From Cystobacter ferrugineus (GTDB lineage: Bacteria; Myxococcota; Myxococcia; Myxococcales; Myxococcaceae), in the NCBI RefSeq assembly GCF_001887355.1, contig NZ_MPIN01000033.1:1-37197 (forward strand): 37,197 bases of DNA, written 5' to 3'. The position numbers were made by a program, and so were the translations under genes. Of the stretch, positions 14,273 to 35,443 are shown one piece after another (position 1 is the stretch's first letter; each line of letters starts with the position of its first letter). The notes under the pieces are model-generated. The model searched no databases and was not told the origin of the DNA. It was given only the letters and a program-made list of their open reading frames with translations.

Positions 14273-14422
14273 GCCCCTCCACCCGCGCGGGTTCCTGCTC
14301 GAGGGTGAGAGAGACGTCGGTGCGCTTCCCCTCGGTGAATGCCCGACACCTGTCCGGCAGCCCGTGATGGACGCGGCCAGGGGGGCCCTCCCCACGGGGC
14401 GTCATTTCTCGTGGCGCATTTG

Positions 14423-14435
14423 TATCAGACTGATA
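14423..14435 (+). promoter_or_regulatory. Palindromic operator upstream of PadR gene
   Basis: Perfect 13-base palindrome, arms TATCAG and CTGATA around a central A, followed by TATATATGG, an AT-rich patch in GC-rich DNA. It ends 23 bases before the PadR start codon. Position and symmetry suit autorepression by the PadR dimer. Confidence 0.65.
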
Positions 14436-14458
14436 TATATGGGGGACAGGAGGACACC

Positions 14459-15049
14459 GTGGCGCGAGAGAACACCTGTCAGTTCGCCATCCTGGGGATG
14501 CTGTGCCGGGAGCCCATGAGCGGTTACGGCCTGCGCCAGGCCATCGAGCGGACGGTGGGGCACTTCTGGCAGGAGAGCTACGGCAACCTCTACCCGACGC
14601 TGGAGCGGATGGAGGCGGAGGGGCTGGTCGCGCTCGACCGGGAGGAGCACTCGCCAGGGGGGCGGGTGCGCAAGGTGTACCGGGTGACGGCGGAAGGGCG
14701 GCGGGTGCTCGCGGAGTGGCTGCGGCGGCCGGTGGTGCCCCACGTGGAGCGCAACGAGCTGCAACTCAAGCTGTTCTTCGGCGCCCGGGTGGGACCGGAG
14801 GCTTCGCTGGAGCACGTGGAGCGCAGCCGGGCCGAGGCCGAGGGGCTGCTGGCCGCGCTGCGGCTCATCGACGAGGACGTTCGCCGCTCGCGCGAGGGCC
14901 ACCCGGAGCTGCCCTACTGGCACCTGTCCATCCGGGCGGGGTTGCTCGGACTGGAGGCGCACCTGCGCTGGTGTGACGAGGCCCAGGAGACGCTCCAGCG
15001 TCTGGTTCGCACGACGAATTCGAAGAAGGCAGAAGGAGGAGTGGGATGA
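14459..15049 (+). CDS. PadR-family transcriptional regulator
   Basis: Winged-helix repressor of 196 residues. The start is GTG 14459 because AGGAGG lies 5 bases upstream; the frame is open 40 codons further up, but that part covers the operator. The N-terminal winged helix (residues 1-90) reads FAILGMLCREPMSGYGLRQA, then SYGNLYPTLERMEAEGLVAL and VRKVYRVTAEGRRVLAEWL, a textbook PadR pattern. A C-terminal coiled-coil dimerisation domain (about 105-185) makes it a Vir-type PadR. Its stop codon overlaps the start of the next gene (ATGA at 15046), so the two are translationally coupled and the regulator probably controls that membrane enzyme and itself. Phenolic or toxic ligands are usual in the family; none is shown here. 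Confidence 0.93.
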   Translation: MARENTCQFAILGMLCREPMSGYGLRQAIERTVGHFWQESYGNLYPTLERMEAEGLVALDREEHSPGGRVRKVYRVTAEGRRVLAEWLRRPVVPHVERNELQLKLFFGARVGPEASLEHVERSRAEAEGLLAALRLIDEDVRRSREGHPELPYWHLSIRAGLLGLEAHLRWCDEAQETLQRLVRTTNSKKAEGGVG

Positions 15050-16605
15050 GCGGTGAAGAAGGCTCGCGGCGCTTGCCGGTGTTCCTGCCATGGCTCGCCC
15101 TGGTGGGCGGGGCCGGCATGTCGATGCTCTTGAATTCGCGTGGGTCACTGCTGCCCGGCTGGTTGATGGGCGCCTTGTTGCTCTTCTTCGTCCGCCAGCA
15201 GCGGCCGGGGGTGGGCTTCGTCGGTATCCTGTGCGTGAACACCCTCGCCACGGGGCTGACGAATCTGGAGGTGTTCCCGGGGTCCGTCGCGGGCAATTTC
15301 GGGATGGCCTTTGGCGGCGCGCTCTTCATGGCGCTGACGTTCCTGGCGGACCGGCTCATCGTGGGGCCGCGGGCCTCCTTCGCGGGGACGCTGTTCCTGC
15401 CGGCGGCGATGACGGGGTTGGAGCTCTTCAGCAGTCAGGGCAACCCGTTCGGCACCTGGGGCTCACTGGCCTACACCCAGGCCGGGGCGCCCGTGCTGGT
15501 GCAGCTCGTGTCGGTGACGGGACTGTGGGGTCTGACGTTCGTCGTGGTGTGGTTCGCCTCCGTGGCCAACTGGGCCTTCGAGCACCGGGACGAGGGGCGC
15601 CGCGTGTTGCCCGGGGTCGCGGTGTACGCGGGCGTGCTCGGGGCCATCCTCGCTTTCGGCGCGCTGCGGCTCGCCGGGGCGGGGAGCGTGGGCGAGTCCG
15701 TGCGGGTCGCGGGCATCACGGTGGCGGGGGAGGTGGCCGCGGGACGCGAGGCGGGGCTGTCCCGACTCATCCAGGGCGGGGCCTTTGGTGACGAGGACTG
15801 GCGTGCCTTCGTCGAGGCCTCGGGTGCGGTGAACGAGGAGTTGCTGCGTCTGTCGGCGCGCGAGGCCGAGCGAGGGGCGAAGCTCATCCTCTGGTCCGAG
15901 GGCAACGCGGTGGTGCTGGCCGGGCAACTGCCGGCCCTGCTCGCACGGGGAAGCGCCCTGGCGCGCGAGCGGAGCGTGTGGCTCGGCATGGCGGTGGCGA
16001 GCTTCGAGCCCTCGGCGGAGCGGATGTTGCGCAACGAGCTCATCCTGGTGGGGCCGGATGGGAACGTGGCCTGGCGCTACGTGAAGGCCCGGCCGGTACC
16101 GGGTTGGGAAGCGGACCACTCCATTCCGGGCAGCCCGGAGGTGCCAGTGCTGCGCGACCCGGGCGTGGGGAACCTGGGGGGCGCCATCTGCTTCGATGGG
16201 GACTTCCCGGCGGTTTTCGCCGGATCCACGGCGCGGGACCTCGAGCTGCTCCTGCTGCCAGCGAGCGACTGGCGGGGCATCAGCTCGCTGCACATGCGGC
16301 AGGCGGTGTTCCGCGCGGTGGAGCAGGGCTTCAGCATGTTGCGGCAGGCCAACCAGGGCGTCTCGGGGGCGGTGGATGGCTACGGGCGCGTGTACGGCGA
16401 GATGGATCACTTCACGGCGGAGGAGCGGGTGCTGCGCGCGGAGCTGCCGGTGGGGCGGGTGCCCACGCTCTACGCGCGCATCGGCGATTCCGTGGGAGCG
16501 CTCTCCGGCCTGGTCGCGCTGGGGTGGGTGGGCTGGGCCGTCGTGGGTGGCCTGGCCCGGCGGTGGCGTGCGCGTGAGAGGCTTCACGCGCAGCCAGGCG
16601 CCTGA
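15046..16605 (+). CDS. Apolipoprotein N-acyltransferase-like membrane nitrilase protein
   Basis: Inner-membrane protein of 519 residues with the layout of Lnt: six or so hydrophobic helices at about 10-210, then a periplasmic carbon-nitrogen hydrolase domain (220-490) and a final membrane helix (about 493-508). The catalytic triad is visible as Glu285 (LWSEGNA), Lys347 (RYVKARPVPGWE) and Cys382 (GGAICFDGDFP). Similarity to housekeeping Lnt is limited in the N-terminal half, and the gene is coupled to a PadR regulator, so it may be a specialised acyltransferase or amidase rather than the essential enzyme. Its last 18 codons are formed by copy 1 of a dispersed hairpin repeat, ending ARRWRARERLHAQPGA. 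The start overlaps the PadR stop by 4 bases. Confidence 0.85.
   Translation: MSGEEGSRRLPVFLPWLALVGGAGMSMLLNSRGSLLPGWLMGALLLFFVRQQRPGVGFVGILCVNTLATGLTNLEVFPGSVAGNFGMAFGGALFMALTFLADRLIVGPRASFAGTLFLPAAMTGLELFSSQGNPFGTWGSLAYTQAGAPVLVQLVSVTGLWGLTFVVVWFASVANWAFEHRDEGRRVLPGVAVYAGVLGAILAFGALRLAGAGSVGESVRVAGITVAGEVAAGREAGLSRLIQGGAFGDEDWRAFVEASGAVNEELLRLSAREAERGAKLILWSEGNAVVLAGQLPALLARGSALARERSVWLGMAVASFEPSAERMLRNELILVGPDGNVAWRYVKARPVPGWEADHSIPGSPEVPVLRDPGVGNLGGAICFDGDFPAVFAGSTARDLELLLLPASDWRGISSLHMRQAVFRAVEQGFSMLRQANQGVSGAVDGYGRVYGEMDHFTAEERVLRAELPVGRVPTLYARIGDSVGALSGLVALGWVGWAVVGGLARRWRARERLHAQPGA
16556..16595 (+). repeat. Dispersed hairpin repeat, copy 1
   Basis: 40 bases identical to 19187-19226. 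They contain a perfect hairpin with 9-base arms TGCGCGTGA and TCACGCGCA around the 6-base centre GAGGCT (16569-16592). This copy is inside the 3' end of the Lnt-like gene. Similarity continues to the left: GTGGGCTGGGCCGT at about 16527-16540 is also present before copy 3. Confidence 0.85.
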
Positions 16606-16663
16606 GACCGGCTACTGGATTTCTCGTAGCAGGGGCCTGACGGGCCGGTGGTTCACCCACCTC

Positions 16664-18109
16664 TCAACGGGTCCTCTCGGTGCCGTCCGACGACATGAAC
16701 GCGCGGATTTCCGAGACCACTTCGTCCGCGGTGTCCTCGAAGAAGAAGTGGTGCGCGTTGGGAAGCTCGACGGTCCTGTGGTCGGGAAGGGCCTGCTCCC
16801 AGCGTTCGAGGTCGCCGCGCGGAAAGCCCGGGTCCTCGAGCGCCCAGAAGATGAGCGTCGGCTTGCCCTCGAGGGACGGGAGGCCGGCTTCGAGCTCCGC
16901 GAAGTAGTCGTCCGCGGCGGTGATCTGCCCCGGATAGAAGGCGGCGATGCCTCGGCGGTCGAGCGGCTGGAACGGACGCACATAGACGTCGGCCACGTCG
17001 GGGGGCAGCTCGCGGACGATGCTGTCCTTCAGCGCGAACGAGGCAAGCCCGTTGAAGTTCATCTGCACGAACTCACCCACGGGCCCGCCAGCGATGACCG
17101 ACCAGATGCCGCGCGGCTCGCTCGTGCGCGTCCTCCACGCCCAGGTGCTCCCCAGGATCATCCGCCGCACGAGCTCGGGACGGCGTTGCGCGAGGCCGAT
17201 GCCGATGGGCCCACCCCAGTCCTGCATGACCAGCGTCACGTCACGAAGCCCGAGGTGCTCGACGAACTCCTCGAGGACGCGGCTCTCCTCACGAGGGGTG
17301 AAGCCGAACTCCGCCGGCGCCTGGGACAGGCCGAAGCCGGGGTAGTCGAGGGCGATGCAGCGGTACGAGCCGCGAAGCCCATGAATCAGGTCGCGCCATT
17401 GGAATGACCAGGAGGGGTTGCCGTGCAGGAAGAGCAGTGTCTCGCCCTGTCCTTCGTCCACGTAATGGATGCGCGCGCCGCTCGGCAGGTCGATGAAGCG
17501 GTGCTCGACGTCGAACATCGGGCGGGGGATGTCGAACGCGAGCCCCGGGGGACCGGACGGCGCGGCCCGTTCGCTCGCGAGCGCGGCGACGACGCCCGCG
17601 GCTTCGAGCGTACCGGCGAGAGCGAGCGCGACCACGCCCGCTCGCGAGCGCGTTGGGTGCTCGACGAAGCGCGGGACGAAGAAGGCCAGGACGACAGCCA
17701 CGGCGATGATGGCTGGGCCTCCGGCAGCGGCGAGACCGGGAGGGCCCATGGCGGCCATCCCGAGGAAGACGGCCAGCGCGAGCCCCAACAGGGCCGCCAG
17801 CAGGAGCGCGCGCGGCCGAGCGGAGCGCCTGGCGAGTGCGCGATGGACGAATGCCGCGCCCAGCGCGGCGAGTACGCACACGGGCGTCACGAGCGCATGG
17901 CGGAGCTCAGGGAAGACGGAGAGCCCGCGAGCATGGGGCACGGCTGCAATGGCAATCGTCGCGGCCAGCACGGCGGGCACGGACGCGGCCCACCCCGCCC
18001 AGAGCATGCGAAGGGCCATCGCACTCGTCCAGGAGTCTTGACCCTCCGCGCCCACCCGAGCGCGTTGGTGCTCGACCCGTGTTCCATTCGTTCCACCGAC
18101 GAGAATCAT
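16664..18109 (-). CDS. Membrane-anchored haloalkane-dehalogenase-like alpha/beta hydrolase
   Basis: 481 residues. The start at 18109 is supported by AGGAGG 7 bases upstream. The N-terminal 180 residues hold about five hydrophobic helices (about 38-57, 68-90, 100-125, 130-147, 157-177), an uncommon addition to this hydrolase group. The C-terminal catalytic domain from about residue 195 has FLHGNPSWSFQWR (oxyanion and halide-site Asn231), nucleophile Asp297 in VMQDWGGPIG rather than serine, acid Asp426 in ALEDPGFP and His454 in NAHHFFFED. Aspartate followed by tryptophan is the haloalkane dehalogenase signature, so dehalogenation or a related hydrolysis is plausible. It is divergent (55-base gap) from an AraC regulator that probably controls it. 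The natural substrate is unknown. Confidence 0.88.
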   Translation of the reverse strand: MILVGGTNGTRVEHQRARVGAEGQDSWTSAMALRMLWAGWAASVPAVLAATIAIAAVPHARGLSVFPELRHALVTPVCVLAALGAAFVHRALARRSARPRALLLAALLGLALAVFLGMAAMGPPGLAAAGGPAIIAVAVVLAFFVPRFVEHPTRSRAGVVALALAGTLEAAGVVAALASERAAPSGPPGLAFDIPRPMFDVEHRFIDLPSGARIHYVDEGQGETLLFLHGNPSWSFQWRDLIHGLRGSYRCIALDYPGFGLSQAPAEFGFTPREESRVLEEFVEHLGLRDVTLVMQDWGGPIGIGLAQRRPELVRRMILGSTWAWRTRTSEPRGIWSVIAGGPVGEFVQMNFNGLASFALKDSIVRELPPDVADVYVRPFQPLDRRGIAAFYPGQITAADDYFAELEAGLPSLEGKPTLIFWALEDPGFPRGDLERWEQALPDHRTVELPNAHHFFFEDTADEVVSEIRAFMSSDGTERTR

Positions 18110-18164
18110 GGTGTGACCTCCTGTTTCTTGCGAGGTACCCTAAGTCCACGTTGGAGGACTGTCA

Positions 18165-19160
18165 GTGCCTGGAACGCCAGAAGAAGGATCCAATCGTCCA
18201 GACCCGAGGGCCCTGGCGGGCGTGGACCCGTTCAGTGACGTCTTCACCGCGATGCGCGCCAGGAGCGCGCTGTATTGCCGGATGGAAGCGAGCGCACCGT
18301 GGGGCGTGAAGTTCGCCGGCTCGCCGCACGCGAAGTTCGGGCTGGTGACGCGCGGTAGCTGCTGGCTCGAGGTCGCCGGAGAGCCGGGCCCCATCCCCCT
18401 GCGCGGTGGAGATTGCTACGTCGTCGCGGCGAACATCGGCATCACGGTGCGCGACGCGCTCCGCACCCGCGCCGTCGAAGGGGAGGCGCTCATCCGGACG
18501 AAGACCGGAGACCTGCTCCACCTCGGTGGCGGCGGGGCGCCGACCACCGTCGTCACCGGCCTGTTCGAGTTCGACGAATGGAGCAGCAAGCCGGTCTTCG
18601 AGCTGCTGCCTCGCGTGTTGTGTGTGCGGGGCGACGAGGCGCAGACCAGTGCCCTGGGCGCGACGCTCAACCTCCTGGCCATCGAAACCGCGACGCCCAC
18701 CCTCGGAGCGCCGCTGGTCATCAACCGCCTGGCGGAAATCCTGTTCGTGCAGATGATTCGGACGCACTACGCGTCGGGCCGGGCCGGCGAGCTGGGATGG
18801 CTGGCGGCGCTCGGAAGCGCACCGCTCGGAGCCGCGCTGCGCGCGATGCACCATTCGCCCGCGCACCCCTGGTCCGTCGAGTCGCTCGCTGGCGTCGCGG
18901 GCATGTCCCGCTCGGCGTTCGCACAGCGCTTCAAGACACAGGTCGGCGAGACACCGCTCGAGTACCTGACGCGCTGGCGCATGTACAAAGCCGGCTGTCT
19001 CCTGCGCGAGGGAGAACTCGGGATCGCGGCCATCGCGGACGCCGTCGGGTACGAGTCCTCCGGCGCCTTCAACCGGGCCTTCCAGCGCATCTACGCGCAG
19101 ACCCCGGGCGAGTTCAGGCGCACCGCTCGCCGCCGCGGGGGCGTGCAGTCCCCGGCCTGA
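18165..19160 (+). CDS. AraC-family regulator with cupin-type sensor domain
   Basis: 331 residues from GTG 18165, chosen because GGAGG lies 7 bases upstream. The N-terminal half (about 25-200) is the cupin sensor found in the AraC_binding/cupin_6 group: FGLVTRGSCWLEVAGEPGPI, LRGGDCYVV. The C-terminal DNA-binding domain has both helix-turn-helices: VESLAGVAGMSRSAFAQRFK, then IAAIADAVGYESSGAFNRAF and the usual ending TPGEFRR. Relatives are often divergent from, and activate, a nearby hydrolase or oxidoreductase; here the partner is the dehalogenase-like gene across 55 bases. The repeat at 19187 begins 27 bases after the stop codon. Confidence 0.92.
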   Translation: MPGTPEEGSNRPDPRALAGVDPFSDVFTAMRARSALYCRMEASAPWGVKFAGSPHAKFGLVTRGSCWLEVAGEPGPIPLRGGDCYVVAANIGITVRDALRTRAVEGEALIRTKTGDLLHLGGGGAPTTVVTGLFEFDEWSSKPVFELLPRVLCVRGDEAQTSALGATLNLLAIETATPTLGAPLVINRLAEILFVQMIRTHYASGRAGELGWLAALGSAPLGAALRAMHHSPAHPWSVESLAGVAGMSRSAFAQRFKTQVGETPLEYLTRWRMYKAGCLLREGELGIAAIADAVGYESSGAFNRAFQRIYAQTPGEFRRTARRRGGVQSPA

Positions 19161-19186
19161 AGGGGTCGCACGGGCGGGGGGGCTTG

Positions 19187-19226
19187 CCCGGCGGTGGCGT
19201 GCGCGTGAGAGGCTTCACGCGCAGCC
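19187..19226 (+). repeat. Dispersed hairpin repeat, copy 2
   Basis: Identical over 40 bases to copy 1, including the hairpin at 19200-19223. Similarity extends a little on both sides; read in the matching frame it would encode the same peptide LARRWRARERLHAQPGA and then TGA, as at the end of the Lnt-like gene, with two synonymous changes. Here it lies in the intergenic region between the AraC and pectate-lyase genes. Confidence 0.85.
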
Positions 19227-19369
19227 CGGCGCTTGACGCAGGGCGCAACGATGGGCCGGCGTTGAAATCGAATGTCCTTCGCGCGATCGTCGCGAACAGA
19301 GCCGAAGCGCGTGCGTGAATGCCGCGGCTCCGACGCGCCGGCTCTCCCGTTGACCACAGGAGCGAGATG

Positions 19370-21178
19370 ATGAATCGCAGGACATTCATGCTGTTGGGGG
19401 TTGCCCCGCTGGCCTTGGCGGCGTGCCGCGGCGGCGACGACGACAAGCCGACACCCACGGAGCCGATACCCACCGACGACCGGGCGGGCCGCGCTCGCGA
19501 TGCCATGAAGCGCGCCGCCGTGTTCATGGACGAGCGGGTATCCTATCGAGGCGGCTACGTCTGGGCCTATCTCGCGGACCTGTCCAAGAGCTGGGGTGAG
19601 ATGGAAGCCAAGCGCACCATGTGCTGGATCCAGCCTCCCGGCACGCCGACCGCGGGTCATTCCTTCCTCGACGCCTATCACGCCACCGGGGACGAGGCGT
19701 TCTACCGGGCGGCCGAGCGCAGTTGCCTGGCGCTGATCGAGGCGCAACATCCGGCCGGAGGCTGGAACTACATCTACGACTTCGCGGGCGAGGAGTCGCT
19801 GAAGCACTGGTACGAAACCATCGGCATCAACGGCTGGCGGCTCGAGGAGTTCCAGCATTACTACGGCAATGCGACCTTCGACGATGCTGGCACCGCGGTG
19901 GCCTCGCAGTTCCTTCTGCGCATGTACCTCGAGAAGCGCGATCCGCGCTTCCTCGAGCCGCTGAACAAGGCGATCTCGTTCGTCCTCGACGCGCAGTACA
20001 AGGGCGGAGTCGCCGACGGCGGCTGGCCGCAGCGCTATCCGTCGTCGCCGAACGCGATCACGTCCATGCCACGGCCCAATCCGGAGCAATTGCCGGAGGG
20101 CGCGTCACAGGGCATGGCGGACGGTGATTACACGCGGCACGTCACGTTCAACGACGATGTCGCCGGCGAGAACATCAAGTTCCTGCTGATGTGCGTGATC
20201 GGACTCGGCGAGACGCGGCTCCTCGAGCCCGTCACGCGCGCGATGGAGGCGCTGCGCCGCTTGCAACAGCCGGCGCCGCAGGCCGGATGGGGGCTGCAAC
20301 ACCTGTCGGCCGACCAGGACGGCCGCCTCGCGGGGGCCCCGGCCGGCGCGCGCAGCTATGAGCCCAGGGCCCTGGCCACTCACACCACCCAGACGAACAT
20401 CCAGCAGCTCTTCCACTACTTCCGGCTCACCGGCGACCGCAAGTACCTCGAGCGGGTGCCCGAGGCCATTGCCTGGCTCGAGAGCACGCGGCTGACGGAA
20501 CAGATGATCGCCGAGAACCCGCTGCTCAAGGGCCGCACGCACCCGACCTTCGTCGAGCTGGGCACCAACCGGCCGCTCTTCGTGCACCGCTACGGCTCCA
20601 ACGTCTGGAATGGCGCCTACTACGTGGACTACGACCATCACGACACGCCGTCGCACTACTCGGCGGGCCGCAGCATCAACCTCGCCACTCTGCAGGCGAC
20701 CTACGATCAGCTCAGCTCGATGAGCGACGCGGCGATCGCGGAGATGGTGGCGAAGTCGCCCCTGAAGAGCACTCAGCCGCGGGCGCTGCCGAAGTACTTC
20801 TCGCTTCGCGAGGTCGACTTCGCCGACTTGTATGCCGACGCGGTGATGGCCACGCCCACGGTGACGGACGAGACGGTCGACGCGCTGATCCAGGACCTGG
20901 GCACCAAGGATCACTGGCTGACGCCCGTGGTGCGCAGCGATCCGGCGGTCGCGGCCTCCTTCGTCACCAACCCGTACCGCGGTAACGGACCGAGCACCCC
21001 CTATACAGGTGACGCGTACCGCAGCAAGCACGTCGGCGACATCTACGACACCTCTCCCTACGACTCCCAGGATCCGCCGGCCACTTATGAGAAGAAGCCG
21101 CGCTTGAACGGCATCTCCACCGCGGACTTCGTGAGCAACATGGGCAAGCTGATCGCCTACGTGGCGCCGCTGAAGTGA
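19370..21178 (+). CDS. Pectate lyase-like lipoprotein (PL10 family)
   Basis: Probable extracellular polysaccharide lyase of 602 residues acting on polygalacturonate-like substrates. ATG 19370 gives MNRRTFMLLGVAPLALAAC, which carries both a twin-arginine motif and a lipobox with Cys19; an adjacent ATG at 19367 is the alternative, and AGGAG lies 7 or 4 bases upstream. After an acidic linker the alpha/alpha-toroid domain shows repeated helix motifs (FLDAYHATGDEAFYRAAE, AEQ-type pairs) and the PL10 hallmark ADGGWPQRYP near residue 215. Further blocks are TRHVTFNDDV and HTTQTNIQQLFHYFRLTGD. The family usually has 320-380 residues in its catalytic part; here a long C-terminal extension follows. It is flanked by repeat copies 2 and 3 and has no pectin-related neighbours. 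Confidence 0.85.
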   Translation: MNRRTFMLLGVAPLALAACRGGDDDKPTPTEPIPTDDRAGRARDAMKRAAVFMDERVSYRGGYVWAYLADLSKSWGEMEAKRTMCWIQPPGTPTAGHSFLDAYHATGDEAFYRAAERSCLALIEAQHPAGGWNYIYDFAGEESLKHWYETIGINGWRLEEFQHYYGNATFDDAGTAVASQFLLRMYLEKRDPRFLEPLNKAISFVLDAQYKGGVADGGWPQRYPSSPNAITSMPRPNPEQLPEGASQGMADGDYTRHVTFNDDVAGENIKFLLMCVIGLGETRLLEPVTRAMEALRRLQQPAPQAGWGLQHLSADQDGRLAGAPAGARSYEPRALATHTTQTNIQQLFHYFRLTGDRKYLERVPEAIAWLESTRLTEQMIAENPLLKGRTHPTFVELGTNRPLFVHRYGSNVWNGAYYVDYDHHDTPSHYSAGRSINLATLQATYDQLSSMSDAAIAEMVAKSPLKSTQPRALPKYFSLREVDFADLYADAVMATPTVTDETVDALIQDLGTKDHWLTPVVRSDPAVAASFVTNPYRGNGPSTPYTGDAYRSKHVGDIYDTSPYDSQDPPATYEKKPRLNGISTADFVSNMGKLIAYVAPLK

Positions 21179-21212
21179 CGTGGGCTGGGCCGTAGGGGGA
21201 GGGGGGGGCCTG

Positions 21213-21239
21213 CCCGGCGGTGGCGCGCGCGTGAGAGGC
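21213..21239 (+). repeat. Dispersed hairpin repeat, partial copy 3
   Basis: Matches the first 27 bases of the 40-base repeat with one change (T to C) and stops just before the right arm of the hairpin, 17 bases from the kinase start codon. To the left it shares GTGGGCTGGGCCGT with copy 1. Confidence 0.75.
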
Positions 21240-21255
21240 GATACACTCGGCCCCC

Positions 21256-24200
21256 ATGGATAGCAGGACCCTCACCTTTCCTCGCCCAGCACCCACCGGG
21301 TTTCCCGAGCCGCTGGGGGCCTCGTTGCCCGCGGGCACCGTCATCGCCGGCCGCTTCACCCTCGAAGAGCTCGCGGGCCGCGGTGGAATGGGGAGCGTCT
21401 ATCGCGCCATCGACTCCCTCTCCCGCCAGCACGTGGCGCTCAAACTGCTGCATATGAAGGACGGAGATGCCCTCCGGCGCTTCACCCGCGAGGCCGAGCT
21501 TCTCTCCGCGCTGCGCCACCCCGGCATCGTCTCCTACCTCGCCCATGGCCAGTCCGAGCAGGGACAGCCCTTTCTCGCCATGCAGTGGCTGGAGGGGGAG
21601 GAGCTCGCCCAGCGCCTGGCTCGCCAGCCGCTGAGCTTGGAGGAGACGCTCTCCCTTTTGCGCCACTCCGCCCAGGCGCTCTCCATCGCCCACCAGCACG
21701 GCGTCATCCACCGCGACCTCAAGCCCTCCAATCTCTTCCTGCGCCAGGGCCGTCCTGGGGACGTGGTGCTGCTGGACTTCGGCCTGGCCCGTCACCTGAA
21801 TCCCTCCACCGCCATGACGGGCAGCCAGATGGTGTTGGGGACTCCCGGCTACATGGCTCCCGAGCAGATCTCCGGCCAATCCCAGCTCATCCCCGCCGTC
21901 GACATCTTCTCGCTGGGCTGTGTCCTCTACGAGTGCCTCACCGGCCAGCCTCCCTTCCGCGCCCCGCACCTGATGGCCACCCTGGCCAAGATTCTCTTCG
22001 CCGAGCCCGTGCCGCTGCTCCAGTTGCGTCCCGGGCTGCCAGTGGCCTTGCAGAAGTTGGTGGAGCGCATGCTCGCCAAGGAGCCCTCGCGCCGGCTGCC
22101 GGACGCCACCAGCCTGCTGGGCGCGCTGGAGGAACTGGGCCCAGCCCTGGTGGAGACGGGGCCCGGCACCGTCACGCTCCAGGAGGCTCCCCCGCCTCTG
22201 CTGGCCAGTGCCAGGCAGCAGCTCGTCACCGTGCTGCTGGCCGCTCCCCGCTCCAACGCGGAGCCCGTCCCCGGGGAACAGCACTCCCGCCTGGCGCTGC
22301 GCGACTCGCTGCGGACCCTGCTGGCCCCCCAGGGGGGCCGGGTGGAGTTGCTGACCAACGGTGCCCTGGTGCTCACCCTGGTGGCCTCCCTCGGCTCGGC
22401 CACCGACCCCGCCGCGCTCGCCGCCCGCTGCGCCCTGTCCCTGTTGGAGCGCTGGCCCGAAGCCGTCGTGGTGCTCACCACGGGCCGCGCCGCCCTCGAC
22501 CAGCACCTGCCCGTGGGCGAGGTCATGGACCGTGCCGGTCAGTTGCTGCGCCAGGTGGAGGGGCTCCCCACGGACTCCGCTCCGGTGCTGCTGGACGAGG
22601 TGACGGCGGGGCTGCTCGGGTCCGGCTTCCAGCTCATCCGTGCCGGGCCGGGCCTCTTCCTGCTGCAAGGCGAGCAGCTCGACGCCGACGAGTCCCGTCC
22701 CCTGCTGGGCAAGCCCACTCCCTGCGTGGGCCGCGAGCAGGAACTGACCCTGCTCGACATGGTCTTCACCACCTGCGTGGAGGAGTCCACCGCGCAGGCC
22801 GTGCTGGTGACGGCTCCAGCGGGGACTGGCAAGTCCCGGCTGCGCCACGAGTTCTTCCGCCGCCTGGAGCACCACGCACCGCACCCGTTGGTGCTGCTCG
22901 GCCGGGGAGACCTCATGAGCGCGGGCTCGGCGGATGGACTGCTCGCCCAGTCCCTACGCCGGTTGTGTGGCATTTCAGGCGGTGAGCCGCTGGAGGTGCG
23001 CCGGGCCCGGTTCTCCCAGCGCCTCTCCCAGCACCTGCCCGCGGCACGAGCCCAGGGGGTGGTGGAGTTCCTCGGGGAGCTGTGCGCCATGGGCCTTCCC
23101 GGACGAGCACAGCCCGCGCCTGCGTGCCGCGCGCGCCGACCCGCAGATGATGAGCCTGCAGGTGGGCCGGGCGTGGGTGGCCTTCCTGAAGGCCGAGTGC
23201 GCCCACCACCCGGTGCTGCTGGTGCTGGAGGATCTGCACTGGGGCGACCTGCTCTCCGTGCGACTCATGGACGAGGCGCTGCGGGAGCTGGCCGAGCAGC
23301 CCTTCATGGTGCTGGCCCTGGCCCGGCCCGAGGTGGAGCAGCTGTTGGCCGGCCTGCCGACGCGGCGCCTTCAGGCGCTTCCCTTGCGCGGGCTGAGTCG
23401 CAAGGCCAGCGCCCGGCTGGTGCATGAGGTGCTGGGCGCGGACGTGTCCGGCGCCCTCGTCGACAGGCTCGTCGAGCACGCCGCGGGCAATGCGCTGTTC
23501 CTGGAGGAACTCATCCGCGGGGTGAAGGAGGGCAGGGGCGAGGGGGCACCGGAGACGGTGCTGGCCATGTTGCAGGCGCGCCTGGGGCGGCTGGAGCCAG
23601 GGCTCCGGCAGGTGCTGCTGGCCGCGAGCCTCTTCGGCCGCACCTTCTGGGCAGGGAGCGTCCGCCTGCTGCTGAGCGGGGACTCGCCAGCGGACGTGTT
23701 GAAGGAGTGGCTCCAGCGCCTGGTGGAGCAGGAGTGGCTGGCGCCGCAGCCGACCAGCCGGTTTCCCGGTGAGGAGGAGTACCGCTTCCGCCACGCGCTG
23801 GTGCGGGACGCGGCCTACGGGTTGGTGCCCGACGGCCACAAACCCGAGGGCCACCGGTTGGCGGGGCGGTGGCTGGAGCAGGCCGGAGAGAGTGATCCCC
23901 GGGTGCTGGCCGAGCACGCCTCGTTGGGCCAGCAGCACGAGCGCGCCGTTCATTTCCTCACCCGGGCCGCCGAGCAGCTCTTCGAGCGCCACGACATGCC
24001 CGGCACGGTCCGGTGCGTGGACGCCGCCCTGGCGCTGGGGCCCCAGGGCGCCGATCTGGTGCAACTGCGCGCGCTCCAGGCCGCCATTGCTTTCTGGACG
24101 GGTGATTACGCGAAGCTGTTCGACATGAGTCCCGCGGTGCTGGCCGAGCTGAGGGCCGGCAGTCCCCTGCGGTACTGGCTGATCAGCGGGCTGTACATGA

Positions 24201-24835
24201 GCCATTGCCTGAGGGGTGAGCAGGAGCGGGCCTCCGCGCTCGGGCAGGAGGTGCTGCGCACCCGTCCGGCGCCGGCGGCGCGCGCCATCTGCCTGGAGGC
24301 GCTCTGCTCCATCTCGAGCATGGGCACCTATTGTGGCGCCCGACAGGAGGCCTCCGCGTTCCTGGCGCGCCTCGCCGAGCTGCGCGCCGAGGTGGGACCC
24401 GAGGCGCTCCTGGAGGGGGCCTGGAGCAGCTTCGCCCAGGGCTTCTTCGCCATTCACTTCGAGGCCCGGCCGTGGAGTTCCCTCGCCTGGTTGGAAGAGG
24501 GCGCCCGAGGGCTTTTCGAGGTGGGTCAGGATCGCAACGCGCTCGGAGCACAGGTCCTGTGGGCCATGGGAATGGAGGCGCTGGGAGACAGGGCCCGCGC
24601 CGAAGCCCTGCTCCGCGAGGGCGTGACCCTGGCCCTGGGATTGAGGCTTCTCCCCGTGCTCCTCCACGCCCGGTTGCATCTGGCCCTGTTCCTGGCGGGC
24701 AGCGCCGAAGCGAGCCAGCGGCAGGAGGCGCTCGCCCTGGTGGATGGCGTGGACGCCGGGGAGGGCCCCAACTTCTTCCTTTTGGGGGCTTCGGGACCCG
24801 TCGTTCCGGACCTACAGCGCCTAGCACGGCACTAG
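21256..24835 (+). pseudogene. Ser/Thr kinase-AAA ATPase-TPR protein, frameshifted, 3' end apparently lost
   Basis: Large cytoplasmic signalling protein typical of myxobacteria, about 1190 residues if one extra base is removed. The kinase domain (30-295) is intact: GRGGMGSVY loop, Lys63 in VALKLLH, HRDLKPSN at 152-159, DFGLARH, and APEQ. A degenerate nucleotide-cyclase-like region follows (about 320-435), then an AAA ATPase with Walker A APAGTGKS (520-527) and Walker B VLLVLEDLHWGD, then TPR-like helices. The frame breaks near residue 613: an extra C at GGGCC (about 23094) switches translation from frame 1 (ending at 23427) to frame 2. Removing it gives ELCAMGFPDEHSPRLRAAR and restores the family pattern. 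The product ends abruptly after GEGPNFFLLG with a short unrelated tail, just before the serine recombinase, so the usual last TPR section seems to be lost. The break may be real or a sequencing error. Confidence 0.85.
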
Positions 24836-24861
24836 TAGGAGAGTGCCCAGGACCACGGGTC
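24793..24861. other. Probable left boundary (attL) of the recombinase element
   Basis: Between the shortened kinase gene and the recombinase. It contains nested inverted repeats: GACCCGT (24795-24801) with ACGGGTC (24855-24861), and GGCACT (24828-24833) with AGTGCC (24842-24847). The kinase stop codon lies inside the inner hairpin. Large serine recombinases usually lie beside their att site, so the crossover is likely here; the exact dinucleotide cannot be named without the other end. Confidence 0.45.
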
Positions 24862-24893
24862 TCCCATTCTCGCTCATGACCGGAGCAGCCCCG

Positions 24894-26429
24894 ATGCCCA
24901 AGGCTTATAGCTATTTGCGCTTCAGCACCCCCGAGCAGATGAAGGGGGACAGTTACAGGCGGCAGAACGCACTGACCCAGGAGTGGCTGGCGAAGAACAA
25001 GGACGTGGAGCTGGGGGAGCTGACCTTCCATGACCTGGGGGTGTCCGCGTTCCGGGGGAAGAACGCCGAGACCGGGAAGTTGGGGGAGTTCAAGGCCGCT
25101 GTGGAATGCGGCATGGTCGAGCGCGGCTCGTTCCTCCTGGTGGAATCCCTGGACCGGCTCAGCCGACAGGCGGCCCGGAAGGCCCAGCGGCTCCTGGAAG
25201 ACCTCTGCGAACTGGGCATTACCGTGGTCACGCTGAGCGATGGCCGGACCTACCACCAGGAGCTTCTGGAGAAGGACCCCTTCTCGCTCATCATGAGCCT
25301 CTTGATCTTCATCCGGGCCAACGAAGAGAGCGCCCGGAAGTCGGGCCTTCTTCAGGCCGCGTGGACCGGAAAGCGCGAGCAGGCCACTTCCAAGCCCATG
25401 ACGGCGAAATGCCCGGGATGGCTTCGGCTGAATCGGGACACGGGGAAGTGGGACGTCATCCCGGAACGGGCCGCCATCGTGCAGCGGGTCTATCGGGAGA
25501 CCCTGGAAGGCCGGGGGCAACGGGCCATCACAGCGGGATTGAACCGCGATGGAATCCCCTTGTTCGGCAAGGCGGGCCGCTGGCACCGTTCCTACACGTA
25601 CCGGCTCTTGAACAACCCCGCCGTGATGGGAACGTTCACCCCGCATACCTCGGACTGGAAGGACGGGAAGCGGCTCCGCAAGCCCATTCAACCCCTGCCT
25701 GGATACTTCCCCGCCATCGTGGACCCCGAGACCTTCCAGCGGGTCCAGGCCATGGGCCAAGGTAGGTCAAGCCCTGCTCGGGGCTCCAATGCGGGAAGGG
25801 ACGTGCAGAACATCTTCGGGGGATTGCTGGCGTGCCCTCGCTGTGGCGCTCGGATGAACATGATCAACAAGGGGGTGAACAGCAGGCGCTACGTGGTTTG
25901 CCGCCGTGCCAGGGCGGGCATGGGATGCACCTATGAGTCCGTGCCCTACGAGACCCTCAAACAGGCGCTCTTGCATGATGCGGAAGCCCTCCTTTGCGAC
26001 CCACGCGCGGGAGGCGCTGAGGGGGATTCCGTGCAGGCCCAACTGGACTTGGCGGCAAACACGCTGGAAGCCGTGGAGGACTACCTCGCGCACCTCTGGG
26101 AGACCCATAGAACCAACCGGCTCCAGAGCATCCTGGGGGAGATCAAAGAGACAGAGGCGGAACGCGAGGTTTTGAGGAAACGAATCCGGGAACTGGCAGC
26201 CAGACGGGACGTGGTGTTGGGGCCTTTCGTGGAGCGTCGCGCTCAAGAGGCCCTGGAAGCGCTCCGTGCGGAGCCCATGGACCGGAAGCGGGTCAACGCC
26301 CTGTTCCGGAGCCTCTTCACCCGCGTGACGGTCAACCATGACCGGGGAACCCTGGAGTTCGTCTGGAAGGGAGGCGGATGCTCCAGTGTCCTCTACGCCT
26401 TTCCCAAGGACTCCGCCGTAGCCGCCTGA
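24894..26429 (+). CDS. Large serine recombinase (integrase)
   Basis: Site-specific DNA recombinase of 511 residues that integrates or excises a mobile element between att sites. ATG 24894 (MPKAYSYLRFSTPEQMKGDS) was chosen as it begins right before the conserved strand; a GGAG lies 9 bases upstream, and two upstream in-frame ATGs are alternatives. The catalytic domain (1-150) has nucleophile Ser11 in LRFSTPEQ and the arginine motif SLDRLSRQ. The recombinase domain (about 165-290) is followed by a zinc ribbon (C314, C317, C336, C345 in ACPRCGAR and RRYVVC) and a coiled-coil segment (about 380-450) that controls integration direction in this family. It is the first gene after the truncated kinase gene and so marks the left end of the element. 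Confidence 0.95.
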   Translation: MPKAYSYLRFSTPEQMKGDSYRRQNALTQEWLAKNKDVELGELTFHDLGVSAFRGKNAETGKLGEFKAAVECGMVERGSFLLVESLDRLSRQAARKAQRLLEDLCELGITVVTLSDGRTYHQELLEKDPFSLIMSLLIFIRANEESARKSGLLQAAWTGKREQATSKPMTAKCPGWLRLNRDTGKWDVIPERAAIVQRVYRETLEGRGQRAITAGLNRDGIPLFGKAGRWHRSYTYRLLNNPAVMGTFTPHTSDWKDGKRLRKPIQPLPGYFPAIVDPETFQRVQAMGQGRSSPARGSNAGRDVQNIFGGLLACPRCGARMNMINKGVNSRRYVVCRRARAGMGCTYESVPYETLKQALLHDAEALLCDPRAGGAEGDSVQAQLDLAANTLEAVEDYLAHLWETHRTNRLQSILGEIKETEAEREVLRKRIRELAARRDVVLGPFVERRAQEALEALRAEPMDRKRVNALFRSLFTRVTVNHDRGTLEFVWKGGGCSSVLYAFPKDSAVAA

Positions 26430-26621
26430 CCATGGGCCGCCCGCCCCCAGCCACGCCAGCCGCTGGGAATGCCCTCCAGGGCCTCTGGCTGGCCGTAGGA
26501 GCCGCGTTGGAGCGTGGCGGGTCCGTCTGACCGCCCGCAGCCTCCAGGAGCCTCCCAGGGCCTCTGGCGGGCCGGACCGATGGAGCCCCGCGAGGGCCCC
26601 ATGGGTCACGCTCTGGAGCAC
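26430..26621. other. Intergenic region with GC-rich direct repeats
   Basis: Convergent gap between the recombinase and the small unknown gene. Two imperfect direct repeats of about 22 bases (26472-26493 and 26551-26573) share the core CAGGGCCTCTGGC, each able to form a CCAG/CTGG hairpin; GCCCT/AGGGC at 26471-26482 forms another. It probably serves as a bidirectional transcription stop. No gene was seen. Confidence 0.4.
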
Positions 26622-27038
26622 CTAATGGGCAATAGAGGGCTTCCACTCGGTCAGGAACAAGTCCCCATCATCCCGGGACTCATGAGCCGCGACCGCGTTA
26701 TGCGGAGCCCAGAGAAACGCCGGGTTGACCTCCCGCCTGATAACGCCCTGAAGCAGGCCCATCCGAGCCCCCAGGAAGGACAACGTGGCGGAGACGCAGT
26801 GGAAGACATCCCCCTGCCCTCCCACGTCCAGGTAGCCGTAAAGCCCAGTGTCCGTCAGAAGCTGGGCACCCCGGAGAGTGAGGTTGAGGGCGGACAGTTC
26901 CCGCCCGAGGCTGACCACCTTGGGGCCGACTTCCTCGGGTTCGTCGGGCTCGCTGGCCTCGGGGCTTCCGACCTCTTCCGGGGTCGTCACCTCGGGGATT
27001 GTGGGCACTTCAGGAGTCTTCTTCCTACTGCGGGGCAT
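26622..27038 (-). CDS. Hypothetical protein, 138 residues, operator-controlled
   Basis: Not recognised. It starts at ATG 27038 with AAGGA 8 bases upstream. The first 40 residues are a charged, proline- and glutamate-rich linker (MPRSRKKTPEVPTIPEVTTP); the remainder looks globular (VVSLGRELSALNLTLRGAQL, VFHCVSATLSFLGARMGLLQ). There is no signal peptide or membrane segment. It is divergent from the XRE gene, and four of the six operator copies lie within 111 bases upstream of its start, so it is almost certainly controlled by that regulator. Such position is common for excision, transfer or replication accessory genes in integrative elements (inference). Confidence 0.65.
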   Translation of the reverse strand: MPRSRKKTPEVPTIPEVTTPEEVGSPEASEPDEPEEVGPKVVSLGRELSALNLTLRGAQLLTDTGLYGYLDVGGQGDVFHCVSATLSFLGARMGLLQGVIRREVNPAFLWAPHNAVAAHESRDDGDLFLTEWKPSIAH

Positions 27039-27076
27039 TCGGTCCGTCCTTTCCTCTTCCGGGGCCTACCTCCCCA

Positions 27077-27149
27077 GTAACTCATAAACTACGTAGCTTA
27101 TGAACTACCTAGACCATGTAGCACATGGGCTACGTATCTCTTGAGCTAC
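27077..27149. promoter_or_regulatory. Operator copies O1-O4 (two abutting 16-base pairs)
   Basis: Four palindromic 16-mers near the consensus GTAGYTCATGARCTAC: O1 27077-27092 GTAACTCATAAACTAC, O2 27093-27108 GTAGCTTATGAACTAC, O3 27118-27133 GTAGCACATGGGCTAC, O4 27134-27149 GTATCTCTTGAGCTAC. O1/O2 touch with no gap, O3/O4 likewise, with 9 bases between the pairs. They lie just upstream of the minus-strand gene at 26622-27038, whose promoter must lie among them. Confidence 0.8.
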
Positions 27150-27231
27150 TTTCCCCAATTAGCCCGAGTGGGCTGACCCTACCCTTCGGATTAACTTGGT
27201 CCGGGGCCCTTGTGGAGACCTGACGAGTCAC

Positions 27232-27263
27232 GTAGTTCATGAACTGTGTAGCTCAAGAGCAAC
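27232..27263. promoter_or_regulatory. Operator copies O5-O6 (third abutting pair)
   Basis: O5 27232-27247 GTAGTTCATGAACTGT contains a perfect 12-base palindrome AGTTCATGAACT; O6 27248-27263 GTAGCTCAAGAGCAAC follows directly. The pair ends 18 bases before the GTG of the XRE gene and is 82 bases from O4. Its position suits autorepression of the XRE gene. Confidence 0.8.
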
Positions 27264-27281
27264 CCTGCGTAAGCCCGCCCC

Positions 27282-27584
27282 GTGCCCACGAAAGCAGGGA
27301 AGCCCCCCATCAAGCGCGGTCGTTCGGAGGTATGGACCCGAGGCCCAACGGCTCGTGCCATCAAACGGGAGTTACTGCTTGTCGGGAAGCGGCTCCGCGA
27401 GCTGAGGCTAGAGCGTGGACTCACTCAGGAACAAGCCGCCGAAGCCATTGGCGTCCACCCCAAGCACGTGATCAAGATGGAGCAAGGGGGCGCGAACTTC
27501 ACTATGGCGACGCTCGTAGCGGCAGCACTGGCCTACAAGGTCCCGCTTCGAGACCTGTTTCCCGAGGATGATAACGGCCAGTGA
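27282..27584 (+). CDS. XRE-family (Cro/CI-type) transcriptional regulator
   Basis: Small DNA-binding protein of 100 residues. The helix-turn-helix covers about 34-92: GKRLRELRLERGLTQEQAAE, AIGVHPKHVIKMEQG, then TLVAAALAYKVPLRDLFPED, a clean XRE pattern. The start is GTG 27282; no ribosome-binding site precedes it, and it may be leaderless. A good CGGAGG at 27325-27330 precedes an ATG (27332) that is out of frame. Three abutting pairs of a 16-base palindrome between this gene and the divergent gene at 27038 are the obvious binding sites. Paired operators read by a small XRE protein recall restriction-modification controller proteins and prophage switches. The nearest cargo downstream is the AbiGi-like/GIY-YIG pair. 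Confidence 0.85.
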   Translation: MPTKAGKPPIKRGRSEVWTRGPTARAIKRELLLVGKRLRELRLERGLTQEQAAEAIGVHPKHVIKMEQGGANFTMATLVAAALAYKVPLRDLFPEDDNGQ

Positions 27585-27808
27585 GAAGAGGATCACCGTA
27601 AGGAACTTAGGTGATTAGCTTGAGCAGCGGCGCGCCCTGCCAATAGACCCACACTAGTAGAAGGGAAACCCTAAGTTACACTAGGAGACAGAGCGAGGAC
27701 GCACGGTGCTACCTCTTCATAGCCGACAAAAATTAACTTCCATGCTCAACCATTCAACCGATGGGCGTAGAGGTCACTAACGGCTTTGCCATGAAGAAGG
27801 GAACGGAA
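27585..27808. other. Low-GC leader region of the AbiGi-like gene
   Basis: GC falls sharply here compared with the chromosome. No gene and no copy of the 16-base operator were seen; it presumably holds a promoter for the cargo pair, so that pair may not be under direct XRE control unless by read-through. Confidence 0.4.
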
Positions 27809-28720
27809 ATGATAAAACATCAAGACATGAGCCAGAGGATGTACGAGGTCAAGTGCAAGGACGGCCATTCGCAGGTATTGACTGCAACTGAACTGGAGCA
27901 GCTCATTCGCTCAAGTGAACATGAATGCCCAGACTGCAAGAACCCCCTGCTCACGTCGAACCTTGGACTCGAATGTTTTATCTGCTCTAGTATGTTTACC
28001 GTCTCCAGTCTCGAAGAAGCAGAGGACACAATAGATACAGGGTGCATGGACTGTGATGAACGCGGGTTTCATGAAGATTCAATTCATATCAACAATTCAT
28101 GGGGATACTTCGAGAACGTCTACCAGTGGAGGCGCAACAATAATCTTGATGAGGAGCATCTGAGACGAAAGGGCCGGACTGACTTCTGGGAAGCTGTTAT
28201 TCACTTCTGCAAACCTCACGAATTTGCCAGCATATACAAAGAGGGGAAGATCAAGGCGGGGAAAACTGGGTATTTCGGAGTACCCGCCGTCTGCTTGACC
28301 GAGATTCCGTTAGGGAACTGGAAGGATCTTCGGGTTCGTCATGGTGACTTCGGCTTCGTGTTTTTGAAGCGAGACCTGATCGCTGCGGGTGGAGGACCAG
28401 CAATTTACCTGTCAGACGAACTGATTCGCGCACAGAAGACCAATGGCGGATTCTGCGAAGAAATCAGGCCATTTCTGAACCTTTTGCGGATCTCATCAGT
28501 GACGCCCGGAAAACTTAGGCACGACTTCATGCACGAGCGTGAATGGCGATTGCCAAACGACCTTCTGCTTGAGAATACCCAGCCGTACGCCATTATAGTC
28601 GGCAACTACGACATGGGCACTGAAGGATGGGAAGACATATGGCGCGCTCGGCTTGAGGTTGAGGAACTACTGACCCAAGAGGACGAAGACACGAGCCAGG
28701 GCATCTCAAAAAGCAAATGA
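27809..28720 (+). CDS. Zinc-ribbon protein with AbiGi-like domain (possible anti-phage factor)
   Basis: 303 residues from ATG 27809 (MIKHQDMSQRMYEVKCKDGH), preceded by AAGGG; ATGs at 27794 and 27827 are alternatives. The N-terminal 85 residues hold three CxxC pairs (C40/C43, C57/C60, C79/C82), suggesting one or two zinc ribbons. The C-terminal part (about 128-270) follows the order seen in the AbiGi family of abortive phage-resistance proteins: a first block HFCKPHEFASIYKEG, then VCLTEIPLGNW, HGDFGFVFLKRDL, GPAIYLSDEL and finally HEREWRLP. In known AbiG systems AbiGi pairs with a toxin AbiGii; no AbiGii is visible, and the partner here would be the GIY-YIG nuclease. The low GC and non-myxobacterial codon use point to recent transfer. 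The family match is by eye, and a DUF2971-like assignment is the alternative. Confidence 0.6.
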   Translation: MIKHQDMSQRMYEVKCKDGHSQVLTATELEQLIRSSEHECPDCKNPLLTSNLGLECFICSSMFTVSSLEEAEDTIDTGCMDCDERGFHEDSIHINNSWGYFENVYQWRRNNNLDEEHLRRKGRTDFWEAVIHFCKPHEFASIYKEGKIKAGKTGYFGVPAVCLTEIPLGNWKDLRVRHGDFGFVFLKRDLIAAGGGPAIYLSDELIRAQKTNGGFCEEIRPFLNLLRISSVTPGKLRHDFMHEREWRLPNDLLLENTQPYAIIVGNYDMGTEGWEDIWRARLEVEELLTQEDEDTSQGISKSK

Positions 28721-28721
28721 T

Positions 28722-28740
28722 TGTTCGGCCATACCGAACA
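28722..28740 (+). terminator. Hairpin after AbiGi-like gene
   Basis: Perfect stem TGTTCGG/CCGAACA with loop CCATA, starting one base after the stop codon. There is no T tract, so it may protect the mRNA end or weaken read-through into the nuclease gene 110 bases downstream. Confidence 0.4.
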
Positions 28741-28849
28741 TCAATGTTCGCCGCCAAAACTTGGGACACAAAGACAGAAGAAGTGACACGTCACTGCTGC
28801 AACCTGAAGACATCAACAGAGCCTGACTCCTACTGGAAACTGAACCGCA

Positions 28850-29266: not shown

Positions 29267-29267
29267 C

Positions 29268-35436: not shown

Positions 35437-35443
35437 AGGAGCA

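What the first reader, a model, noticed from the sequence alone, without database searches (positions are those of the whole stretch)
16520..21245. Gene modules bounded by direct copies of a hairpin repeat that also ends a coding sequence
A 40-base sequence is identical at 16556 and 19187 and partial at 21213. Its core is two 9-base arms around a 6-base centre, a shape like recombinase core sites or extragenic palindromes. Copy 1 forms the last codons of the Lnt-like gene; copy 2 encodes the same C-terminal peptide plus stop but lies between genes. The copies delimit a hydrolase/AraC module (2.6 kb) and a pectate-lyase module (2.0 kb). Either modules were inserted one after another at the 3' end of a gene, each rebuilding that end, or a genome-wide repeat was captured as a gene end.
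Basis: partly seen in the sequence, partly recalled or inferred. Interest (0 to 1): 0.65.

Follow-up and report, generated by a model that had tools for sequence, protein, structure and literature searches.

The report
Stacked gene insertions with duplicated gene-end scars
In a soil myxobacterium, foreign genes were added one after another behind one gene, leaving copies of that gene's tail as scars, and similar-looking scars sit behind unrelated genes elsewhere in this genome and its relatives.

Summary
The repeat is real, but it is neither a REP family nor a demonstrated recombinase site. The 28-nt core occurs three times in the 12-Mb genome, all here. A fourth, right-half copy lies on contig C13. 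The copies are the 3' end of the lnt-like gene. G032 and G033 have lnt-lyase without the hydrolase/AraC pair, and G033 keeps a second lnt end behind the lyase. In the window strain the pair sits between copies 1 and 2, and a kinase gene, itself interrupted by an element with a serine recombinase, splits the last copy. So three modules are stacked at one gene end; copy 1 is the working end.

The pattern may recur. In 1.6 Mb of this genome and two sisters, 12 short direct-repeat pairs and no inverted pairs were found. I read five as gene-end scars around 2-4 kb modules; one of the other loci has an empty site in a relative. The ends compared share no motif. No tyrosine recombinase lies on contigs C33 or C13. 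Best mechanism, inferred: single-crossover integration of trimmed, recircularised DNA carrying a gene end plus cargo, as reported in E. coli (PMC3240628).

The parts
14339..15049 (+). PadR-type regulator, conserved partner of the lnt-like gene
   Evidence: Pfam PadR 2e-19; found beside lnt in 14 of the 15 relative loci mapped, the 15th (L040) being cut at its contig end
15046..16605 (+). host gene: apolipoprotein N-acyltransferase-like (LNT_N + CN_hydrolase), 519 aa, whose 3' end is the repeated sequence
   Evidence: matched in 16 of 58 family genomes searched at E <= 1e-40
16528..16619 (+). copy 1 (c1): working 3' end of the lnt-like gene plus a few bases of the ancestral flank
16606..16667 (.). 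remnant of the 3' end of the ancestral convergent neighbour (ORF461, open at C13:14007-15392), ending about the hydrolase stop codon
   Evidence: window 16570-16652 vs C13:13965-14048, 84.5% over 84 nt; ORF461
16664..18109 (-). module 1: alpha/beta hydrolase (haloalkane-dehalogenase-like)
   Evidence: Pfam Abhydrolase_1, NCBIfam haloalkane dehalogenase below cutoff; no match at E <= 1e-60 in G032/G033/G034
18165..19160 (+). module 1: AraC-family regulator with cupin domain, divergent from the hydrolase
   Evidence: relatives over 80% identical only in G041 and G063 among 92 genomes
19172..19242 (+). copy 2 (c2): lnt end whose right flank matches the lnt-lyase spacer of G032/G033
19319..21178 (+). 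module 2: pectate lyase, matched only in G000, G032, G033 of 195 phylum genomes
   Evidence: Pfam Pec_lyase 7e-17
21180..21239 (+). copy 3 (c3): left half of the lnt end behind the lyase; right half continues at C13:13965-14048 (c4)
   Evidence: unsplit in G033 (L099:8990-9088)
21256..24772 (+). module 3: Ser/Thr kinase with AAA domain (frame-shifted in this assembly); rest of the gene at C13:13523-13972
24773..37197 (.). left part of an element inserted into the kinase gene (continues to C33:45505 and, by inference, C13:1-13522), with a large serine recombinase at 24843-26429 and IS elements

Best explanation
The repeats are scars of successive gene acquisitions behind one gene. SHOWN: three modules (hydrolase/AraC; pectate lyase; kinase) lie in a row after the lnt-like gene, separated by copies of its last 13 to about 90 nt; sister genomes lack module 1 and module 3 at this site. 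INFERRED ORDER (by parsimony): lyase before hydrolase/AraC; kinase after the lyase. INFERRED MECHANISM: incoming DNA carried a 3' end of the host gene plus cargo. After trimming and end-joining into a circle it entered by one crossover at the host gene's 3' end. The result is intact gene, cargo, gene end as relic, old neighbour. No dedicated recombinase is needed. Gene 3' ends would be favoured because this outcome leaves the host gene intact. The strong hairpin in the lnt end may make the site break-prone but is not needed elsewhere. The kinase event, with 13 nt of overlap, calls for microhomology rather than ordinary homologous recombination.
For: Copies are confined to this locus. G032/G033 show lnt-lyase without hydrolase/AraC, and c2's right flank matches their lnt-lyase spacer. 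G033 has an unsplit lnt end behind the lyase where the window strain has it split by the kinase. At least one insert seems to have brought its own lnt end: if the lyase came first, the ORF461 flank of c1 was no longer behind lnt; if hydrolase/AraC came first, c3 could not have been copied from c2, which lacks about 17 nt that c3 has. c2 is nearer than c1 to the lnt ends of G032/G033 (4 and 6 against 7 and 7 differences in 61). The lyase is in 3 of 195 Myxococcota genomes. Other loci: 12 short direct pairs against 0 inverted in 1.6 Mb outside the window; I read five as host-gene ends with a relic behind a 2-4 kb module, lnt of G033 being one; one other has an empty site in G033. Six repeats compared share no common motif; none of 10 proteins scanned from four such modules (one of them the ambiguous C1:327412 case) matched a recombinase family. 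Precedent: in E. coli, 56 of 60 Lac- clones from one-armed linear DNA had duplicated the homologous gene end, explained by degradation, recircularisation and single crossing-over (PMC3240628, passages).
Against: No donor with lnt next to hydrolase/AraC or kinase was found. Identities of 45-98 nt are short for RecA, and 13 nt is too short (established knowledge, recalled). Repeat-bearing insertions are a minority: 2 of 23 clean G032/G033 indels have an overlap of 30 nt or more. Enrichment at gene ends is modest once either copy may count (P about 0.03 for 5 of 12; 0.07 if gene density is underestimated). Pairs were classified by eye, and 35 pairs outside the size limits were not read. One pair has the relic upstream of the real gene (C1:327412/333792) and one covers the 5' half of a tRNA-Sec gene. 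No jump in divergence along padR-lnt marks a donor-derived tract. The order of modules 1 and 2 is not certain: module 1 could have been lost in G032/G033 by recombination between c1 and c2. c1's flank could also have been copied from the relic behind the lyase.
Confidence: 0.5

Rival explanations
1. Site-specific accretion: the lnt end is an attB-like site (9-nt arms, 6-nt centre); the modules are remnants of integrative elements that lost their integrases (cis-mobilizable elements) and were stacked by integration into the end copy.
For: Same gene end used repeatedly, direct repeats, gene end rebuilt; the kinase insertion meets the relic at left arm plus centre; perfect palindrome in the three module-bearing genomes. 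Tandem decayed elements with retained att sites are described (PMC5704250, passages).
Against: No PF00589 match on C33 or C13; nearest in G033 is about 318 kb away and the one on G032:C66 about 78 kb. Palindrome imperfect in G002, G003, G005. Repeat lengths differ (13, about 60, about 90 nt). Other gene-end repeats share no motif. Other recombinase classes were not searched genome-wide.
Confidence: 0.2
2. Recipient-only duplication: breaks or staggered nicks near the hairpin, or template switching during repair, captured foreign DNA and duplicated the local sequence.
For: Variable repeat lengths including a 13-nt one; strongly folding lnt end; most other clean indels between G032 and G033 have blunt or gapped junctions. 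The pattern at G032:219679 also fits mutation of unconstrained relics.
Against: With either order of modules 1 and 2 one copy needs sequence that the adjoining resident end lacked: the ORF461 flank of c1, or the extra 17 nt of c3. A switch to another copy in the same genome could still supply it.
Confidence: 0.2
3. Genome-wide REP-like palindrome captured as a gene end.
For: Palindromic shape only.
Against: 3 hits of the 28-mer in 12.05 Mb, all here; exact 22-mer only in G000 (3 places) and G033 (1 place) of 92 genomes.
Confidence: 0.01
4. Integron-like cassette array: gene plus site units added at a fixed first site.
For: Repeat copies follow the stop codons of AraC (15 nt on), lyase (1 nt on) and kinase (overlap) in the same orientation.
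Against: Sites are copies of the lnt end without the integron attC boxes (box consensus recalled, looked for by eye); 8 tyrosine recombinases scanned score at most 152.5 bits against the 265-bit integron-integrase cutoff; the other matches were not scanned.
Confidence: 0.02

Closest known systems
Single-crossover integration after trimming and recircularisation of one-armed linear DNA (seen while testing homology-facilitated illegitimate recombination in E. coli, PMC3240628)
   Same: Host gene end duplicated around the insert, variable repeat length, no site-specific recombinase
   Different: There 109-950 bp repeats in 14 sequenced clones of a laboratory selection; here 13-98 nt, in wild genomes, apparently at several unrelated genes and serially at one gene end
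CIMEs and tandem accretion of ICE/IME remnants (PMC5704250)
   Same: Recombinase-free modules, direct repeats made of a gene end, stacked in tandem
   Different: No integrase found nearby, no shared att core among loci, unrelated targets, modules of one to three ordinary genes
SCC composite islands at the 3' end of orfX (listing and abstract beginnings; otherwise recalled)
   Same: Several inserts in a row at the 3' end of one gene with direct repeats
   Different: SCC needs Ccr serine recombinases at one fixed site; the serine recombinase here belongs to an element inside the kinase gene, not to the modules

Membership tests
REP/BIME-type palindromic repeat | many dispersed intergenic copies | tested here: not met
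   3 of 3 genome hits of the 28-mer lie in one locus
CIME / att-site accretion | retained attL/attR with a common core that a known integrase uses | tested here: inconclusive
   common core of 13 nt or more at this locus; no tyrosine recombinase on C33 or C13; no shared core among other repeats
CIME / att-site accretion | precise excision or integration by an integrase | not testable with these tools
   needs an assay
Integron | integron integrase (IntI) in the genome | tested here: inconclusive
   8 tyrosine recombinases scanned, 7 of them from G000, none over cutoff; the other matches not scanned
Integron | attC-type sites with conserved boxes | tested here: not met
   copies are lnt coding sequence; boxes recalled and looked for by eye only
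Trim-circularise-single-crossover insertion | duplicated host gene end flanking the insert, direct only | tested here: met
Trim-circularise-single-crossover insertion | relic copy keeps the resident right flank | tested here: met
   G032:221736 against the empty site in G033; copy behind the lyase in G033 and c4 carry the ORF461 flank
Trim-circularise-single-crossover insertion | copy 1 carries a donor-type right flank | tested here: inconclusive
   ORF461 remnant behind c1 depends on insertion order; at G032:219679 decay is not excluded
Trim-circularise-single-crossover insertion | donor molecule with gene end plus cargo | tested here: not met
   no donor found; G041/G063 share only the hydrolase/AraC pair with the window
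SCC-like island | ccr-type recombinase in the insert acting at the gene end | tested here: not met
   the serine recombinase lies in an element inside the kinase; its Ccr match is 4e-6, far below cutoff

The most novel reading that the evidence does not exclude
Archangium-group myxobacteria gain accessory genes genome-wide by a recombinase-free, additive route that places small modules behind host genes and leaves gene-end scars. These scars record where genes were acquired, and at lnt help to tell in what order; there may be a few dozen per genome (extrapolated from five in 1.6 Mb).
Probability: 0.4. Interest if true: 0.65.

Novelty: new variant of a known kind. Interest (0 to 1): 0.5.

Why it matters
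How bacteria insert foreign genes without integrases or transposases is poorly documented in nature (my judgement). A single-crossover outcome reported in one E. coli experiment appears here as a footprint, stacked three deep at one gene end and apparently repeated at others. The scars make the route testable: they predict empty sites, donor-type flanks and a bias to gene 3' ends. It may help explain how myxobacteria reach 12-Mb genomes.

Tried and rejected
REP family: rejected. Integron: no integron integrase over cutoff among 8 scanned. Recombinase core site at all scars: no shared motif, and among six repeats only the lnt end folds unusually. Reading copy 3 as a truncated end next to a native kinase: replaced after its right half was found on C13. 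A rule that all insertions carry such scars: rejected, only 2 of 23 clean G032/G033 indels overlap by 30 nt or more. A donor of the lyase: only a 48.6% relative on an Indioceanicola record and a 26% partial match. Paper searches: the listings, which show at most the best 4-12 papers each, named no description of gene-end scars in myxobacteria; apart from passages of PMC5704250 and PMC3240628 (and abstract and outline of the latter) I saw only listings and abstract beginnings.

Repeat scan: 47 direct pairs of any length 1-7 kb apart were found outside the window (14, 20, 7, 6 and 0 in the five stretches) and 0 inverted. Only the 12 of 40-150 nt and at least 78% identity were read; the other 35 were not. 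The 12 by my reading: 5 gene-end scars (C1:91579/95374; C1:345693/348967; G033 lnt; G032:219679/221736; C13:74831/76803); 1 gene end with the relic upstream (C1:327412/333792); 1 tRNA-Sec, 5' half; 2 coding paralogy or repeated domain (C1:150596, C1:187025); 1 unexplained coding-like repeat (G033 5709110); 2 palindromic, MITE-like by eye (G032:350065, 354442). Empty sites for the C1 and C13 cases were not found or not sought.
Full report
Setting. The window is positions 1-37197 of contig C33 (45,505 bases) of a 12.05-Mb draft genome, G000. Three further genomes, G032, G033 and G034, are of its genus.

Observation. The 28-mer, allowing 3 mismatches, has 3 matches in the window and none in 100 shuffles. 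In the whole genome it has the same 3 and no others. Copy 1 (c1) is the end of a Lnt-like gene preceded by a PadR regulator.

The locus in relatives. With up to 3 mismatches, 5 of 96 family genomes, G000 included, carry the 28-mer: G000 three times, G033 twice, and G032, G002 and G003 once each. The lnt gene was matched in 16 of 58 genomes searched, G000 included. I mapped 15 relative loci. In G032 and G033 the order is padR-lnt-lyase; hydrolase and AraC are absent there. In G033 a full second lnt end lies directly behind the lyase stop codon; in G032 I read a decayed one, too short for the search. That search, of each of the 16 loci for a second copy of its own lnt end, gave matches with E below 1e-10 only in G033 and the window. 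Weaker hits, such as 36 nt inverted in G042 (5e-6) and 70 nt at 69% in G025 (0.008), I take as chance. The lyase is matched in 3 of 195 Myxococcota genomes at E <= 1e-30. The hydrolase is in 16 of 92 family genomes at E <= 1e-60, none of them G032-G034. AraC relatives over 80% identical appear only in G041 and G063, where the pair also lies together; homology to the window spans 16684-19131 only.

The fourth copy and third module. The G033 sequence behind the lyase (epimerase side) occurs in G000 on contig C13. There C13:13965-14048 is the missing right half of copy 3, followed by ORF461, a frame convergent with lnt, and then the epimerase gene. The window side of the break begins with a Ser/Thr kinase gene. 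The C13 side ends with the C-terminal part of a kinase of the same kind. Against the kinase of G003 the two parts cover residues 122-1290 and 1295-1441. So one kinase gene sits inside the lnt end behind the lyase, with only GCGCGTGAGAGGC (13 nt) common to both junctions, and it was itself interrupted by an element with a large serine recombinase at its left end (24843-26429). That C33 and C13 are joined by this element is inferred; both contig ends lie in repeated sequence. A kinase 81% identical lies elsewhere in G032.

Order of events. The lyase is shared by three genomes and hydrolase/AraC is in one, so by parsimony the lyase came first. Loss of module 1 in G032/G033 by recombination between c1 and c2 is not excluded. 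Copy 2's right flank matches the lnt-lyase spacer of G032/G033, with a short gap. Copy 1's right flank is 3' sequence of ORF461 (84.5% over 84 nt with C13). If the lyase was already there, that flank came with the insert or from another copy. If hydrolase/AraC came first, copy 3 (from 21180) cannot have been copied from copy 2, which lacks about 17 nt of it. Either way at least one insert seems to have brought a lnt end of its own. In the 61-nt overlap, copy 2 is closer than copy 1 to the lnt ends of G032 and G033 (4 and 6 against 7 and 7 differences). These are small numbers.

Is there a recombinase? PF00589 gave 17, 8 and 11 matches in G000, G032 and G033. None of the 17 lies on C33 or C13. 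The nearest in G033 is about 318 kb away and the one on G032:C66 about 78 kb. Eight of the matches (seven from G000) were scanned against NCBIfam; none reached an integron-integrase cutoff. Other recombinase families were not searched genome-wide. The palindrome is perfect in the three module-bearing genomes but imperfect in lnt of G002, G003 and G005. In the lnt end the 9-nt stem is rare (0.3% of 300 random windows), and none of 600 random windows folds as stably by RNA parameters.

Does it occur elsewhere? I scanned 400 kb of G000:C1, 400 kb of G033, 400 kb of G032:C66, 217 kb of G000:C13 and 200 kb more of C1 for repeats 1-7 kb apart. The G032, G033 and C13 stretches are partly syntenic. 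Outside the window there were 47 direct pairs of any length and 0 inverted pairs; 12 direct pairs had 40-150 nt and at least 78% identity, and only these were read. The window adds 2. Five of the 12 are, by my reading of the translations, a host-gene 3' end with a relic behind a module: a bacterial PH-domain gene (45 nt, 100%, 3.8 kb with LysR, MFS and hydrolase genes), an ABM monooxygenase gene (98 nt, 98%, two genes, one with a weak peptidase C25 match), lnt in G033, a 232-aa gene in G032 (53 nt, 92%, a nuclease-toxin-like and immunity-like pair), and a gene on C13 (81 nt, 93%; cargo not scanned). Cargo and host families. The G032 case has an empty site in G033 with one copy (overlap 49 nt). 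There most differences from G033 lie on the insert-facing sides of both copies. This fits a donor-borne end but also relaxed constraint on relics. Six repeats (lnt, the four other scars, and the ambiguous C1:327412 pair) share no common motif: 14 of 15 comparisons share words of 9 nt or less, and lnt and ABM share 11 nt. Only lnt folds unusually.

How strong is the pattern? A 68-nt window lies within 30 nt of a predicted stop codon with probability about 0.08, or about 0.16 if either copy may count. Five of 12 then has P about 0.03, and 0.07 if that probability is 0.2 because my gene prediction is sparse. So the bias to gene ends is suggestive rather than proved. Among 23 clean insertions between G032 and G033 only 2 overlap by 30 nt or more at the empty site. 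Gene-end scars are thus one outcome among several.

Mechanism. An incoming fragment with a host gene's 3' end and cargo, trimmed at its ends, joined to a circle and integrated by one crossover, gives exactly: intact gene, cargo, gene end, old neighbour. In E. coli, one-armed linear DNA gave such a duplication in 56 of 60 Lac- clones, 109-950 bp in the 14 sequenced, and the authors propose degradation, recircularisation and single crossing-over (PMC3240628, passages). The short overlaps here, above all the 13 nt of the kinase, are the weak point: they call for microhomology joining or for erosion of longer repeats. The main rival, accretion of decayed integrative elements at an att site (PMC5704250, passages), fits this locus in shape but has no tyrosine recombinase on these contigs and does not fit the unrelated targets elsewhere.

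Verdict. A real, well-resolved case of serial gene acquisition at one gene end. The hairpin is probably incidental or at most a fragile spot. The wider gene-end-scar pattern is the more interesting result and needs a genome-wide test.

Noticed in passing
window 24773-37197, continuing to C33:45505 and by inference C13:1-13522: An element of at least 34 kb with a large serine recombinase (24843-26429), IS elements and a Prim-Pol gene interrupts the kinase gene; both ends carry an inverted CTTCGGGACCC (read by eye).
   Followed up: partly
window 21256-24772: The kinase reading frame shifts between two frames near 23100; pseudogene or assembly error not decided.
   Followed up: no
padR-lnt in L026-L040, L098-L111: padR and lnt are 73-93% identical in 15 relatives, but most pairs of genomes share no neighbouring DNA on either side within the roughly 5-13 kb compared: a plastic spot.
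   Followed up: partly
G033 5444059-5444170 (L216:4059-4170): A 56-nt direct repeat covers the 5' half of a tRNA-Sec gene and flanks 1.8 kb.
   Followed up: no
G032:C66:219732-221735 (L243): AHH nuclease toxin-like gene with Imm11-like immunity gene inserted behind a 232-aa gene, with an empty site in G033.
   Followed up: partly
G033 5766166-5780284: A 14.1-kb insertion relative to G032 and G000 with an overlap of 281-282 nt at the empty site.
   Followed up: no
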